In this document: positions 2,816 to 34,344 of the stretch, in pieces
How the letters are laid out: each line of letters opens with the position of its first letter
Numbering within the stretch: position 1 is the stretch's first letter
Position numbers and translations under genes: made by a program
Assembly: GCA_016281275.1 (NCBI GenBank)
Contig: JAEEIH010000076.1
Span: forward strand, 1-43,538
DNA length: 43,538 nucleotides
Reading direction: 5' to 3'
Origin: Lachnospiraceae bacterium
Lineage (GTDB): Bacteria; Bacillota; Clostridia; Lachnospirales; Lachnospiraceae
Notes under the pieces: model-generated
What the model saw: the letters and a program-made list of their open reading frames with translations, nothing else
What the model was told of the DNA's origin: nothing
Databases searched by the model: none

Positions 2816-2901
2816 TATCCTTTCTCCTCTCCTCTTTGGAAGAATTCGTACAGCTTCCGAACTGCGGTCGGTCATCGCCTCTCAAAACCGCCTATGTAAT
2901 G

Positions 2902-16526: not shown

Positions 16527-19355
16527 TCAACCCATCGGAACGTCGTCGGCAACAACATCACCGCCTTCATCCTCATTTACCTGTTCCGCGTTCTTTTTCT
16601 TTGATTTCTTTTCGTCTTCTTCCTGCCCGGTTTCCTCATCGACCGCTTCCGCACCGTCAGCCTCATCCGAAGGAACAAGATCTCCGTTTTCGTCGAGCAT
16701 CATGCCGTGGGGCAGATGCTTATCGCAAAGCTCGTCCGGATGATAAACATACGGCGTATCGCTTGTGGTGATAGGGAACGGATATTCCTTCTTAAGTATC
16801 TCTTCCCATTCGGGCGGATATTCATAATTCTCATCCTTGATAAGAAGGACCACGCTCTTTCTCTTCTTCTCGGGACAATCATCACGCGCGATCTTTTTTG
16901 ATTTGGTACAGATTTCAACCCTGACGTGACACGTGCATTTTTCTGTCGGAACCGTGCCCTTTGCAAAGAATTCACTTGCAATCGTCGACCCGCCTTCCGC
17001 TTCATCGCAAAGTCCGGCAACCGCAAGCTTTCCGCATTTCGTACAGATATTGGCCTTAACGATCGAATCGGGCATTTCGAATTCCTTGTCCGGAAGTTCG
17101 AGAGTCGAATGAATTTCCTCCATAATATTGCGCCACAGATCCTGCTGATAGGATTTGTTTTTCTGCTCGAAGTTGTGGTCGAATCCTGTCCATACGGCAG
17201 CTGTATAATAAGGCGAGAAACCGACAAACCAAAGGTCGTTGTTTTTTGACGCGGTACCCGTCTTGCCCGCAAGATGCATCTTGTAATTCTTAAACGCGAG
17301 CCTTGAACCGGTACCGTTCGTGATCGTATCCTCCATGGCATCGGTAAGAAGCCATGCGGTCGAAGTTTTCATAACCTGTGACGATTTGGGTTTCTTACTG
17401 ATAAGCACATAACCGTCATGGTCACGTATTTCCGTGTACATGATGGGTGTGTTATAAACTCCCTTGTTTGCAATGGACGCATATGCCGCGTTAAGTTCCA
17501 CGTTGTAAACACCGTCCGTAAGACCGCCGAGAGCGATGGCAAGGTTGATATCCGAATAGTACGTGCCGTCTTCCATCTTCTTCGATCTCACAAGCGTTGA
17601 GAAGCCGAGCTTCTCAAGGTATTCAAATCCAAGCGGAGCTCCGATCTGCTGAAGAGTGCGCACCGCAACAATATTAAGCGAGCTCGAGATACCTTTCCTG
17701 ATGGTCTGGAGACCTCTGAAGCCGGTATTATACCAGTTGTAAACTTCCTTCGTTGTCTGCGGATAGAAGAACGGTGAGTCATCCTGCACCGATGCGAGCG
17801 TAAGGCCGGCAGCATCGATAGCCGGAAGGAAGGACGCAAGGACCTTGAATGTGGAACCCACCTGGCGGGGACTCTGTGAAGCACGGTTTAGTGTTCTGAG
17901 TCCCGTCTTGGGACCTCTTCCGCCGTAAATGGCCTTAACTTCACCGGTTGCCTGCTCGATTACCGTGAACGAGGATTGGGGTTGCTTTACTATGTCCTTG
18001 TCTTCAATATATGTCTCGCCATCCTTAACCACATGGTTACGGAATTCCTCGATCTTGGCATTCATATCGTCGATGTCAAGAAAAAGCTCATTGATTCCCG
18101 TCCTGCCGTGTTCGTGGTAATAATATCCCTGCGTGTCATTGTAATCTTTAAAATATTGCAACAGATCATTTCTGTGGTAATGTGTGATCGTGCCGTCCTC
18201 ATGGTAAACCGAAAGGTTATAGGGATAAAGCTCGTAGCACGAACCCGTGGAACTTGTAAACCCAAATTCGGGGAAATTCGCATCGTCTGTATAATATTTA
18301 TCCACGATGGACTGAATATGTCTGTCCTGGGTGGTATAAATGCTTATACCTCCGAAATACAGCATATGTTGCGCTTGCTCCATGGTGATGCCGAGCTCTT
18401 TTGAAAGATCTTTTGTAACCTGGTTTATAAGCTCATCGGTAAAGTATGAAAATGATGTAACAGTCGTCGACTTTTTACGGCTCGCAATGTCCATGATCCT
18501 GCCATAGACATCGTCGGCTACCGCCTCATCGTATTCGTCCTGTGTACAATATCCCTGATCCCTCATGTTTTTAAGACAGTTCAGACGTCTCTCCGCATTC
18601 TCTTCGGGATAATTGACAGGATTACGTAATGTGGGTGAATATGCTATAGGCGCAATGACCGCCGCTTCGGAAAGCGTCAGTTCACCGACACTTTTTTCAA
18701 AATACGTGTTTGCCGCAGCCTCAATTCCGTACGCGCCGTTTCCGAGATTGACAAAATTAAGATAATTTTCAAGTATCTCACCCTTGCTCATCTCATCCTC
18801 AAGCTTGATCGCAAGGAACATTTCCTGGATCTTTCGGATGATCTTATCGAGCCCGTTTTCCTCGTTACCGCCGGAAAATACCATGTTTTTCAAAAGTTGC
18901 TGCGTAATGGTACTTCCGCCGTAATTGAGTCCGCCTTCCTTAAAAACAGAAAAACCCGCACGCATGATACCTCTGATATCAATACCGCTGTGTTCGTAGA
19001 AACGCTCGTCCTCGAGCGCGACAAAGGTATGCTGTACCATCTCCGGAATCTCATCTATCGTCACGGGCACTCTGTTAGCCTGCGCGCCTGCAAAAGACTG
19101 TGCTACCGTACCGTCCGAATAATATGAAGTTGAACTGTAGCCCATCGGCGTGAGTTCTGCTATCTTAACAACCGGAGCCGTGTCGATAAGAGCGTTCACT
19201 GCTCCGAAGCCCGCCGTGATAATGCAAATCGCTGCGCCGACGATTCCTACCAGAAGAAGACGAAAGACTATGATCCAGAATTTGCTGATGAGTTTTCTCC
19301 ACGGAGACTTCAGCTTCCGGGCATAGCATTTCATACCATATCTGCTGTAATCCAT
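16527..19355 (-). CDS. Class A penicillin-binding protein (PBP1A-like)
   Basis: Glycosyltransferase motifs (EDERFYEHSGIDIRGIMRA, GGSTITQQLLKN); transpeptidase motifs (SPRQVGSTFKVLA, SSLN, AGKTGTASKNNDLWFVGFSP). Start set at MDYSRYGMKC. Confidence 0.95.
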   Translation of the reverse strand: MDYSRYGMKCYARKLKSPWRKLISKFWIIVFRLLLVGIVGAAICIITAGFGAVNALIDTAPVVKIAELTPMGYSSTSYYSDGTVAQSFAGAQANRVPVTIDEIPEMVQHTFVALEDERFYEHSGIDIRGIMRAGFSVFKEGGLNYGGSTITQQLLKNMVFSGGNEENGLDKIIRKIQEMFLAIKLEDEMSKGEILENYLNFVNLGNGAYGIEAAANTYFEKSVGELTLSEAAVIAPIAYSPTLRNPVNYPEENAERRLNCLKNMRDQGYCTQDEYDEAVADDVYGRIMDIASRKKSTTVTSFSYFTDELINQVTKDLSKELGITMEQAQHMLYFGGISIYTTQDRHIQSIVDKYYTDDANFPEFGFTSSTGSCYELYPYNLSVYHEDGTITHYHRNDLLQYFKDYNDTQGYYYHEHGRTGINELFLDIDDMNAKIEEFRNHVVKDGETYIEDKDIVKQPQSSFTVIEQATGEVKAIYGGRGPKTGLRTLNRASQSPRQVGSTFKVLASFLPAIDAAGLTLASVQDDSPFFYPQTTKEVYNWYNTGFRGLQTIRKGISSSLNIVAVRTLQQIGAPLGFEYLEKLGFSTLVRSKKMEDGTYYSDINLAIALGGLTDGVYNVELNAAYASIANKGVYNTPIMYTEIRDHDGYVLISKKPKSSQVMKTSTAWLLTDAMEDTITNGTGSRLAFKNYKMHLAGKTGTASKNNDLWFVGFSPYYTAAVWTGFDHNFEQKNKSYQQDLWRNIMEEIHSTLELPDKEFEMPDSIVKANICTKCGKLAVAGLCDEAEGGSTIASEFFAKGTVPTEKCTCHVRVEICTKSKKIARDDCPEKKRKSVVLLIKDENYEYPPEWEEILKKEYPFPITTSDTPYVYHPDELCDKHLPHGMMLDENGDLVPSDEADGAEAVDEETGQEEDEKKSKKKNAEQVNEDEGGDVVADDVPMG

Positions 19356-19364
19356 TTCTCTCCT

Positions 19365-19472
19365 CTTTGGAAGCATATTTTCGCTTCCGTTTCCTTGCCC
19401 AAAGCATGACCAAGTACAAGATTTCTTTGGAAGCGTGTTTTTCGCTTCCGTTTCCTTGCCCAAAACATGACC
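19365..19472 (-). repeat. Two tandem copies of a hairpin leader motif upstream of the PBP gene (60-bp period)
   Basis: CTTTGGAAGCATATTTTCGCTTCCGTTTCCTTGCCCAAAGCATGACC and CTTTGGAAGCGTGTTTTTCGCTTCCGTTTCCTTGCCCAAAACATGACC (plus-strand reading). Confidence 0.85.
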
Positions 19473-19534
19473 CCAAAAAAATCCACTATGCTGGATTATA
19501 ATAATTTGTGCCCTTACATGCAATCAATTTCTTG

Positions 19535-20167: not shown

Positions 20168-20227
20168 ACAATCTCCTCTTCGAAAGCGTTTTTCACGCTT
20201 GCATTTCCGGGATCAGATTTTGAAAGA

Positions 20228-22381: not shown

Positions 22382-24225
22382 TCACGCGTCTTCTTCTTTT
22401 TCTGTTTTATTTCATACATGCAGTTATCGGCACGTTTAACGAGCTCTTCAAGGCTTGTGCTGTCTTCAGCGCTGTTGTTGATCACAAAACCGACACTCGC
22501 GGAGACAGCAAATTCAAGCCGATTGTCATGAGTGTAGTTTTCGAGATATTTATCGAGTGTCGAGATCCTCGTCCTCACATCCTCGTCGCTGATAAACGCA
22601 CCCATAACAAGGAATTCGTCTCCGCCCATGCGCACTCTGATATCGGTATCCGCGAAAGCGGTGCATATCGCACCCGCTATTCCCTTAAGCGCCACGTCTC
22701 CCATCGCATGCCCGTATTTGTCATTTATCTTTTTAAGGTCATCAAGGTCAATGTAGACAATGTAGACTCTTCCGAAATTCTTCTCGAAGAAATTACCCGC
22801 ATACGCGGCATAACCGAAACGGTTCAAAAGATCGGTGAGTGAATCCCTTACATAAAGCTTCTGGAGCTTAAGGTTTACTCCGTTGATGGCTATCCTCTGG
22901 CTTATATTCTCAAGTGCCAGTGAAATACTGTTCATGAATGTCCTGTAATTACCTGATTTAAAGAATCCTTCATCATATTCCGAGATCGTATAACCAAAGG
23001 ACTGACTTCCGAAATGAAGCGGTGAAAGGATGAAGATTTTCGATTCATTCTTACTGTTCCAGTAAACAGGGAAGATTCCCTCCTCCGAACGTTTGAAATT
23101 ACCGCTGACGTTACTGCTGTAGTAATTCATGCTGTCCGTAAATCCCTTCTGCTCCTTCTCAATCAAACCGTCGAAGAAAGATCTGTTGATGCAGATGGCC
23201 ATCTCCTCAATCCCGAATGCCTCGCAACCCTCGCCAAAATCAAGCATAAAGCCCTCAAAGCTGTTCTTGCTGCAAAGGTTGTTACGTACAAATTCCTGGA
23301 TGTTATTCATCTTCTCATTAAATTCGTTGAGAAGGATCATGTCCTGATAGTCCGCACGATAATCACGTCTCGATCTGCAGCCGCAGCTCTCGTTAAGCTT
23401 TATCCGACCCTGAATGAGCACCGACTTTTCAGAAGCTCCGCTCTTCATCATCTGAAGAAGTCTTTTTGTAGCCTCAAGTCCCGCCTTACGTCTGTTTCTG
23501 TTGATACTGGTAACTGACGGATAGAATGTCTGTCCGATATTGACATTGTCAAATCCGGTGACCGCAAAATCATTCGGAATCTCATGACCGTCTCTCATGG
23601 CCGCTTCGATATAACCGACTGCCATATAATCATTTGCACAGATAACAACATCGGGTGCCTCGAGTCCCATCCTCTTGAAATCCTGATATGCAAGAGCACC
23701 GTCCTCACGGAGGAATCTGTAGTTACGCACACGTTTGGGGTCAAGCTCCACCCCGTGAGCATCGAGACAGTCCTTAACAGCGCGAAGTCTGCTAATGTTT
23801 TCCTGATGATCCTCGGGACCTCCCACATAATTAATTACCTTTGCTTTGTGGTCAATGATCATGTGCTCCGCAAGCTTGTACATGGACGAATAATTGTCGA
23901 TACCGCAGAACGCAGCGCCCTCAATCTCCTGATCGATACTGATAACGGGCTTTCCCGCGTCAATAAACGGCCGTACTATCCCTTCAACCGCGCGAACGGA
24001 GTCATTGCCGTTGAGCGCAAGGATAATACCGTCATAGCTTTTAACGTCAGGCAGCAAAAAGATCTCGCCTTCCTTCATATAGTAAGACGATGTCTGTGCC
24101 GACTCGAATGCATTAACAATATGCACTTCGGTATTAGTGCCTATTACCGCTTCTTCAACACCGTCAATAAGCTCGCTTGTGTACTTATTGTCCCAAGTGG
24201 TAGAGAACATGAGTATCTTCTGCAC
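22378..24225 (-). CDS. LacI-type periplasmic-binding-fold sensor fused to GGDEF diguanylate cyclase (GTG start)
   Basis: LacI effector-domain signatures (VGGPEDHQENISRLRAVKDCL, DVVICANDYMAVGYIEAAMRDGHEIPNDFAVTGFDN) without an HTH; RVRMGGDEFLVMG. Confidence 0.85.
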   Translation of the reverse strand: MQKILMFSTTWDNKYTSELIDGVEEAVIGTNTEVHIVNAFESAQTSSYYMKEGEIFLLPDVKSYDGIILALNGNDSVRAVEGIVRPFIDAGKPVISIDQEIEGAAFCGIDNYSSMYKLAEHMIIDHKAKVINYVGGPEDHQENISRLRAVKDCLDAHGVELDPKRVRNYRFLREDGALAYQDFKRMGLEAPDVVICANDYMAVGYIEAAMRDGHEIPNDFAVTGFDNVNIGQTFYPSVTSINRNRRKAGLEATKRLLQMMKSGASEKSVLIQGRIKLNESCGCRSRRDYRADYQDMILLNEFNEKMNNIQEFVRNNLCSKNSFEGFMLDFGEGCEAFGIEEMAICINRSFFDGLIEKEQKGFTDSMNYYSSNVSGNFKRSEEGIFPVYWNSKNESKIFILSPLHFGSQSFGYTISEYDEGFFKSGNYRTFMNSISLALENISQRIAINGVNLKLQKLYVRDSLTDLLNRFGYAAYAGNFFEKNFGRVYIVYIDLDDLKKINDKYGHAMGDVALKGIAGAICTAFADTDIRVRMGGDEFLVMGAFISDEDVRTRISTLDKYLENYTHDNRLEFAVSASVGFVINNSAEDSTSLEELVKRADNCMYEIKQKKKKTRD

Positions 24226-24313
24226 TGTCCGCTCCTCTCTTTTCTTTGGTTGCGATAAAATCGCAACCGTTTCCTCGCCCATACCTTCACTAAACACACA
24301 TACCGTTGAAACG

Positions 24314-25489: not shown

Positions 25490-25717
25490 TTCTTTGTGAT
25501 GCAGATTACTGTCTTCCGCACCTTTCTCCTCTTTTGAACCGGCTTTATACCGATTCCGATTCCTCGACCGATACATTATCACGTATCGGACAACTTATAA
25601 TCTATTCTATTATGACAGATTCACTCAAGTAATTCAAGTTAAGTAAAAGTAATAACGGTATATTCATTGTTTTGTTTATAAAATATACGATGCAAACGGA
25701 TAACATCCTTTGCCATG

Positions 25718-34238: not shown

Positions 34239-34249
34239 CCGCATATCTC

Positions 34250-34344
34250 CTCTTTGGCGGCTGTGTTTGCCGCTGATTCCTCGCCAAACACATAACTATG
34301 TACAAGGGTACTCTTTAGCGGCGCTTTTTGCCGCTGATTCCTAT
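34250..34344 (-). repeat. Two tandem copies of a hairpin leader motif upstream of the second ATPase (61-bp period)
   Basis: CTCTTTGGCGGCTGTGTTTGCCGCTGATTCCTCGCC and CTCTTTAGCGGCGCTTTTTGCCGCTGATTCC (plus-strand reading). Confidence 0.8.

What the first reader, a model, noticed from the sequence alone, without database searches (positions are those of the whole stretch)
19356..19480. Recurrent hairpin plus AAAGAGGAG leader motif with covarying stems, tandemly duplicated upstream of the PBP gene
On the minus strand the leader reads TCATG(C/T)TTTGGGCAAGGAAACGGAAGCGAAAA(TATG/ACACG)CTTCCAAAGA twice at a 60-bp period, and the proximal copy ends in the Shine-Dalgarno AAAGAGGAG. The same architecture (GGAAAC/GGAATC, stem-loop, then CAAAGA or AAAGAGGAG, then a start codon) recurs upstream of unrelated genes in this window with different but compensating stems:
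- GGTTGCGA/TCGCAACC (24232-24280, LacI-GGDEF).
- AATCGG/CCGGTT with one G-U pair (25525-25570, transglutaminase lipoprotein).
- AGCGGC/GCCGCC or GCCGCT (34250-34344, ABC ATPase).
- AAGCGT/ACGCTT (20174-20212, YigZ).
- GGAAG/CTTCC (2826-2858, nrdD).
Varying stems with conserved flanks are what a structured RNA or REP-like element should show. In the PBP copies CTTTGG and CCAAAG could also pair, giving an alternative fold that competes with the hairpin.
Basis: partly seen in the sequence, partly recalled or inferred. Interest (0 to 1): 0.75.

Follow-up and report, generated by a model that had tools for sequence, protein, structure and literature searches.

The report
Hairpin repeat inserted at ribosome-binding sites
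A roughly 65-base RNA-hairpin repeat, found only in one genus of gut (rumen-type) Lachnospiraceae, sits directly in front of about a hundred unrelated genes of this genome and seems to have spread by inserting at the ribosome-binding site while leaving a working site next to the gene.

Summary
The PBP leader carries two tandem copies of a 61-68-nt element: hairpin P1, conserved linker (GG)RCRAGGAAWC, hairpin P2, then AAAGA, with the gene's GGAG directly after. A covariance model from 28 copies finds at least 134 copies (98 arrays of 1-4 units) in this 2.43-Mb genome, 8-79 in ten congeners, one in another, none in twelve, and none in 297 family genomes outside the genus. P2 and P1 show compensatory changes; the proposed competing fold does not. 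Of 95 arrays, 75 end 4-13 nt before an ORF start (random 10%, opposite strand 3/95). Downstream genes are functionally unrelated. Copies turn over fast: close orthologues have the element in one species and a short leader in another. A few filled/empty pairs show clean gains of one unit after a native GGAG-type Shine-Dalgarno, and stand-alone copies carry GAG/GGAG at the left edge far above background. No Rfam match; no Y1 transposase or reverse transcriptase found in the two richest genomes. Best reading: a new BOX-like small interspersed repeat that inserts at Shine-Dalgarno sequences. A regulon-type riboswitch is less likely. The mover and any effect on translation are unknown.

The parts
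19360..19426 (-). PBP copy 2 (proximal), whole element (71.4 bits); ends in AAAGAGGAG, the Shine-Dalgarno of the PBP gene (ATG at 19355-19353)
19389..19400 (-). PBP copy 2: conserved core GGGCAAGGAAAC
19369..19388 (-). P2 hairpin of copy 2, GGAAGC (19388-19383) / GCTTCC (19374-19369)
   Evidence: covariation of this helix
19360..19368 (-). AAAGA (19368-19364) plus GGAG (19363-19360)
   Evidence: AAAGA/AATGA kept in 34 of 36 non-terminal copies while GGAG is in 4 of 36, versus 71 of 95 terminal copies
19420..19482 (-). PBP copy 1 (distal), core 19461-19450, P2 arms 19449-19444 / 19434-19429, AAAGA 19428-19424, no GGAG
16527..19355 (-). downstream gene: class A penicillin-binding protein (Transgly + Transpeptidase)
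24239..24306 (-). copy upstream of the LacI-type/GGDEF gene (start at 24225)
34247..34312 (-). copy upstream of the ABC-transporter ATPase gene
34317..34342 (-). 5'-truncated copy (GGAATCAGCGGC..GCCGCTAAAG) in tandem before the ABC copy
   Evidence: 13.6 bits, E 0.11; by eye
   Evidence: 31.0 bits
   Evidence: 19.0 bits, E 0.005
2826..2858 (-). P2-like hairpin plus AAAGAGGAG before nrdD; not a model hit, membership doubtful

Best explanation
The PBP leader holds two tandem copies of a genus-specific, non-coding, dispersed repeat (a small interspersed element, BOX-like in scale). Each copy lies in the sense direction of a gene and can fold into two hairpins flanking the linker RAGGAAWC. SHOWN: more than 130 copies in the genome; covarying helices; fixed orientation, ending immediately 5' of start codons; tandem arrays; presence/absence differences at orthologues between congeners; GAG/GGAG far above background at the left edge of stand-alone copies, and AAAGAGGAG at the right edge of most terminal copies. 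INFERRED: new copies insert 3' of the GGAG of a native Shine-Dalgarno, and GGAG is present again at the element's 3' end (carried or duplicated), so the gene keeps a ribosome-binding site at normal spacing; the resulting direct repeats (SD-element-SD) allow local duplication into arrays; P2, standing right against the exposed SD, probably keeps it single-stranded, so that insertion is tolerated or mildly useful. UNKNOWN: the enzyme that moves it, and its real effect on translation.
For: 37 core hits vs 0 reversed control; 134 model hits, 98 arrays of 1-4 units. 12 of 24 congeners with hits, 12 with none, including a 100%-complete one; of 299 family genomes only the two in this genus match; an exact-pattern scan of 84,980 species genomes found 8 stretches, all in Lachnospiraceae/Clostridia MAGs, several named as rumen or omasum. 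P2 92.9% paired, 6 of 8 pairs compensatory on an alignment not fitted to the model; both helices supported on 118 and 42 copies of two species. 75 of 95 arrays end 4-13 nt before an ORF start, random 10.2%, opposite strand 3/95. Orthologue tables (both/only first/only second/none): 4/19/11/394, 4/19/6/170 and 0/10/9/209. Filled versus empty: 66-nt gain at a cheY-like gene (98.4% aa identity) next to AGGAGAAATAATATG; 68-nt gain at L174 vs L057; a single-unit gain at L181 vs L098 with near-identical flanks and left GGAGA present in both; four 64-nt copies at pyrH where three relatives have a short leader. Left flank of 49 stand-alone copies: purines 80% at -6..-1 vs 54% upstream, GAG at -3..-1 in 15 (background 1.9%, p 9e-15), GGAG in 9 (background 0.5%, p 3e-12). 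Downstream genes unrelated. SD more exposed than with shuffled leaders in the window genome (0.60 vs 0.51, p 9e-5).
Against: No mobilising enzyme identified: Y1_Tnp and RVT_1 absent from the window's genome and from G121. No terminal inverted repeats seen. Only a few filled/empty pairs have flanks similar enough to place the boundary, and L181 lacks GGAG on the right, so carried GGAG and target duplication cannot be told apart. Retention at orthologues is somewhat above chance in two of three comparisons (odds ratio about 5-7.5, p 0.006-0.04), which a selected regulatory role would also give. SD exposure gain is not significant in the second species (p 0.23; start region p 0.005). The left-edge analysis used my own rule to exclude tandem copies, and a conserved 5' end of the element could mimic part of it.
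Confidence: 0.66

Rival explanations
1. A cis-regulatory RNA: an aptamer or RNA-binding-protein target (linker RAGGAAWC plus AAAGA between and behind two hairpins) that controls translation of a large regulon by occluding the adjacent Shine-Dalgarno, with tandem copies giving cooperativity.
For: Conserved unpaired linker and covarying helices; direct contact with the SD; AAAGA kept in 34 of 36 non-terminal copies although only 4 of them have GGAG; mild excess of shared occupancy at orthologues.
Against: Downstream genes share no pathway; the element is confined to part of one genus; most orthologues lack it in the sister species; 90% lie behind a co-directional gene, many probably inside operons, against 78% expected; predicted structures leave the SD open; the competing fold has no covariation.
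Confidence: 0.22
2. A REP/RAYT or IS200/IS605-derived element: P1 and P2 are the ssDNA hairpins recognised by a Y1 transposase, which inserts 3' of a tetranucleotide (here GGAG) on one strand without target duplication.
For: Fixed orientation, insertion 3' of a GGAG-type target and paired hairpins are what such enzymes would give (family knowledge); Y1 genes exist in 12 of 24 congeners.
Against: No Y1_Tnp match in the two genomes with most copies, one of them 99% complete; Y1 presence does not track the element across the genus; the unit is two unlike hairpins with a linker, not the 20-40-bp palindrome of REPs.
Confidence: 0.1
3. Ordinary convergent ribosome-binding-site hairpins: many genes of a species with AAAGAGGAG-type SDs happen to have a 5' stem, with no common descent.
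For: The nrdD and YigZ leaders show that weak look-alikes exist.
Against: Similarity extends over about 65 nt including unpaired positions; bit scores up to 82 with zero hits in many congeners and in the other family genomes; tandem arrays and filled/empty pairs.
Confidence: 0.02

Closest known systems
BOX elements of Streptococcus pneumoniae (PMC3049150)
   Same: About 125 per 2-Mb genome, modular, with internally repeated tandem modules, fold into stem-loops when transcribed, restricted to a few relatives, next to unrelated genes.
   Different: BOX has terminal inverted repeats and target duplications and is also found between convergent genes (70 upstream of at least one CDS, 16 convergent). 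This element has no such ends that I could see and sits at Shine-Dalgarno sequences in one orientation. Sequence kinship not claimed.
REP/BIME elements with RAYT (TnpA-REP)
   Same: High copy number, short hairpins next to a short tag, GGAG-like tetranucleotide at the edge (literature lead, and memory).
   Different: Two hairpins plus conserved linker, always sense and at the RBS, no Y1 transposase in the richest genomes.
Tandem riboswitches (for example glycine, NAD+-I, guanidine-II)
   Same: Tandem copies of a small structured leader RNA next to the SD.
   Different: No Rfam family matches; no coherent regulon; one genus only; fast turnover.
MITEs in general
   Same: Small, non-autonomous, structured, dispersed.
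   Different: No inverted termini or parent IS identified; SD-specific position.

Membership tests
BOX / MITE small interspersed repeat | many dispersed copies, absent at orthologous sites of relatives | tested here: met
BOX / MITE small interspersed repeat | highly base-paired secondary structure | tested here: met
BOX / MITE small interspersed repeat | terminal inverted repeats | tested here: inconclusive
   edges CCTGGTAC.. and ..AAAGA(GGAG) are not complementary by eye; no dedicated search, exact ends not settled
BOX / MITE small interspersed repeat | target site duplication | tested here: inconclusive
   GGAG on both sides at several loci but only on the left at L181
BOX (S. pneumoniae family itself) | boxA/boxB/boxC sequence homology | not tested
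   kinship of sequence not claimed
REP/RAYT | Y1 (RAYT) transposase in the same genome | tested here: not met
   0 matches in G000 (82.6% complete) and G121 (99% complete)
REP/RAYT | 20-40-bp single palindrome with GTAG/GGAG tag at its foot | tested here: not met
   two unlike hairpins with an 8-12-nt conserved linker
Riboswitch / protein-binding leader | covarying structure with conserved unpaired positions next to the expression platform | tested here: met
Riboswitch / protein-binding leader | functionally coherent downstream genes | tested here: not met
Riboswitch / protein-binding leader | alternative fold that sequesters the SD | tested here: not met
Riboswitch / protein-binding leader | ligand or protein binding | not testable with these tools
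   needs experiment
Any Rfam 15 family | match at gathering score | tested here: not met
   window; 10 copy-rich loci, E up to 10

The most novel reading that the evidence does not exclude
A mobile element about 65 nt long whose target site is the Shine-Dalgarno sequence: it inserts 3' of GGAG on the sense strand and has GGAG again at its own 3' end, so it can colonise the 5' leader of almost any gene, including essential ones, without destroying translation, and then grows into tandem arrays.
Probability: 0.45. Interest if true: 0.85.

Novelty: new variant of a known kind. Interest (0 to 1): 0.7.

Why it matters
If right, a bacterial lineage has rebuilt about a hundred gene leaders with one repeat that targets the ribosome-binding site. 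That would be a natural, portable translation-initiation leader, a new way for a selfish element to stay harmless, and a rich set of matched with/without orthologues for measuring what a 5' hairpin does to translation. It would also warn against calling every covarying, SD-adjacent RNA motif a riboswitch.

Tried and rejected
Competing fold CTTTGG/CCAAAG: no covariation beyond shuffles. Upstream ORF: GTACATGG sometimes gives an ATG with SD spacing and a short frame, but ATG is replaced by ATA or TTC in many copies and hairpin lengths of 16-25 nt break the frame, so no conserved peptide (by eye). Known RNA family: none. Y1/RAYT and reverse-transcriptase mobilisation: not supported by gene content. 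Phage carriage: no exact-pattern match in the viral contigs. Species-specific amplification judged by pairwise identity: no difference within versus between species (0.64, 0.65, 0.64), so not claimed; adjacent copies in an array are more alike (0.80 vs 0.64). The family-wide core-pattern search gives only 0-7 matches per genome outside this one, mostly no more than its reversed control.

Full report
WHAT WAS CHECKED. On the minus strand the PBP leader reads twice, 61 bp apart..TCATGYTTTGGGCAAGGAAACGGAAGCGAAAA..GCTTCCAAAGA, the proximal copy running into GGAG and ATG at 19355. The core pattern GGNCRAGGAAWCNG has 37 matches in the 2.43-Mb genome of which the window is contig 101, against none for the reversed pattern.

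ANATOMY. Copies align over about 65 nt: P1 (consensus YYGGTACAT-loop-ATGTNTTGG; in the second species CCTACTACTTCGTTGAAGTGTTTGG), the linker RCRAGGAAWC, P2 (RGNNGC..GCNNCY, total 16-25 nt), AAAGA. On an alignment not fitted to any structure, P2 is 92.9% paired with compensatory change in 6 of 8 pairs; P1 is weaker there, 72.7% paired with compensatory change in 4 of 11. On model-fitted alignments of 118 copies of this genome and 42 of a relative, all 17 and 15 of 17 pairs change on both sides, with covariation scores of 0.42 and 0.44 against 0.21 and 0.18 for shuffles and at most 0.13 for slid partners (such alignments lean towards the model). A longer modular form with two extra small hairpins (GGCC-TAAA-GGCC and GCATTCCC-TTCG-GGGAATTGCGG) stands first in about a dozen arrays. 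AAAGA (or AATGA) belongs to the unit: 34 of 36 non-terminal copies keep it, only 4 have GGAG, whereas 71 of 95 terminal copies have GGAG.

ABUNDANCE AND RANGE. Model R1 finds 134 matches at E<=0.01, grouped into 98 arrays (71 single, 19 double, 7 triple, 1 quadruple; spacing mostly 60-68); only 150 candidates are scored, so this is a lower bound. In the genus 12 of 24 species match (134, 79, 62, 50, 19, 14, 12, 12, 12, 10, 8, 1) and 12 have none. Of 299 genomes of 298 genera in the family, only the two of this genus match (which scored 17 candidates per genome). No Rfam family matches.

POSITION. 75 of 95 arrays end 4-13 nt before a start codon of an ORF of at least 60 aa; random positions 10.2%, the same test on the opposite strand 3 of 95; several of the other 20 are also just upstream of a gene, at a slightly different distance. 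75 of 83 with a neighbour have a co-directional upstream gene (0.90; all genes 0.78), median 163 nt from stop to start. The genes are unrelated: PBP, LacI-GGDEF, ABC ATPases, jag, fabG-like, aldose epimerase, EAL, hisH-like, MCP, trmB-like, ruvB, infA, pyrH, trigger factor, Mur ligase, ddl, ECF transporter, fliG, fliS, cheA, uppS, DNA polymerase III delta', guaA, purD, aroC, hprK, class II tRNA ligase (names beyond the Pfam domain are my reading).

GAIN AND LOSS. Among reciprocal best hits with the 5' region present, element status is both/only first/only second/none = 4/19/11/394 (G000-G121, identity >=35%), and at identity >=60% 3/16/9/246 (G000-G121), 4/19/6/170 (G000-G106) and 0/10/9/209 (G121-G106). 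At pyrH this genome has four 64-nt copies in about 260 nt where three relatives have a short leader. Other filled/empty pairs: a cheY-like gene (98.4% aa identity; 66-nt insert abutting AGGAGAAATAATATG), L174 versus L057 (68 nt; left edge ..CGAGGAG, native ..AAAGGAG), and L181 versus L098, where nearly identical flanks differ by one unit inserted after GGTGCAGGAGA. In 49 copies with no copy before them the bases left of P1 are SD-like: purines 80% at -6..-1 against 54% further up, GAG at -3..-1 in 15 (background 1.9%), GGAG in 9 (background 0.5%). Hence many copies are bordered by SD-like sequence on both sides.

MECHANISM. The simplest account is insertion 3' of GGAG in a native Shine-Dalgarno, with GGAG present again at the 3' end, followed by duplication between the direct repeats. 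Selection alone (random insertion, survival only at RBSs) explains the position less well, because neutral copies elsewhere or in the other orientation should be common and are rare here. Whether GGAG is carried or duplicated is open; L181 shows it only on the left. No Y1 transposase or reverse transcriptase was found in this genome or in G121, so the mover is unknown. As to effect, the SD is predicted to be slightly more open with the real leader than with shuffled ones in this genome (0.60 vs 0.51, p 9e-5), not clearly in G121 (p 0.23); I take P2 as an insulator that makes insertion tolerable (inference).

VERDICT. Observation confirmed; 'structured, REP-like' partly supported; 'switching leader' not supported. 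It resembles a BOX-type small interspersed repeat (PMC3049150) but without visible inverted termini and with a specific seat at the Shine-Dalgarno: a new variant of a known kind.

Noticed in passing
G000 C144:33988, C211:651, C88:16158, C155:927, C1:1405, C188:27044; L117:19850, L134:13619: Long modular form of the element with two extra hairpins (GGCC-TAAA-GGCC; GCATTCCC-TTCG-GGGAATTGCGG) between P1 and the core, mostly first in an array.
   Followed up: partly
L190:8420-8640 (G106): Tandem array in which each unit also contains the last codons and stop of the upstream gene (GGGTAGAGAAGCCTAGTGAAAAT), so array growth there duplicated host flank together with core and P2.
   Followed up: partly
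G000 C111:6347, C14:7274, C35:2345, C178:3060, C2:11284; window 34317-34342: First copies of arrays are often 5'-truncated, keeping little more than the P2 hairpin or its 3' arm and AAAGAG.
   Followed up: partly
L082 about 6240, L026 about 640, L069 about 4509, upstream of pyrG in L106: A second, different repeat: GGGGACGGGGGTTGTGGGTCATTTGATTTTTTGACCACCCGGGGACGGGGG.
   Followed up: no
L088 about 7600, L099 about 9950, L098 about 5500: Another inverted repeat, GGTACTTAGCGG..TTTTA..CCGCTTATGTACCGC..ACGTCGAA, next to some copies.
   Followed up: no
G000 and G100-G122 (genus): Y1_Tnp and RVT_1 genes are patchy across the genus and missing from several element-rich genomes.
   Followed up: partly
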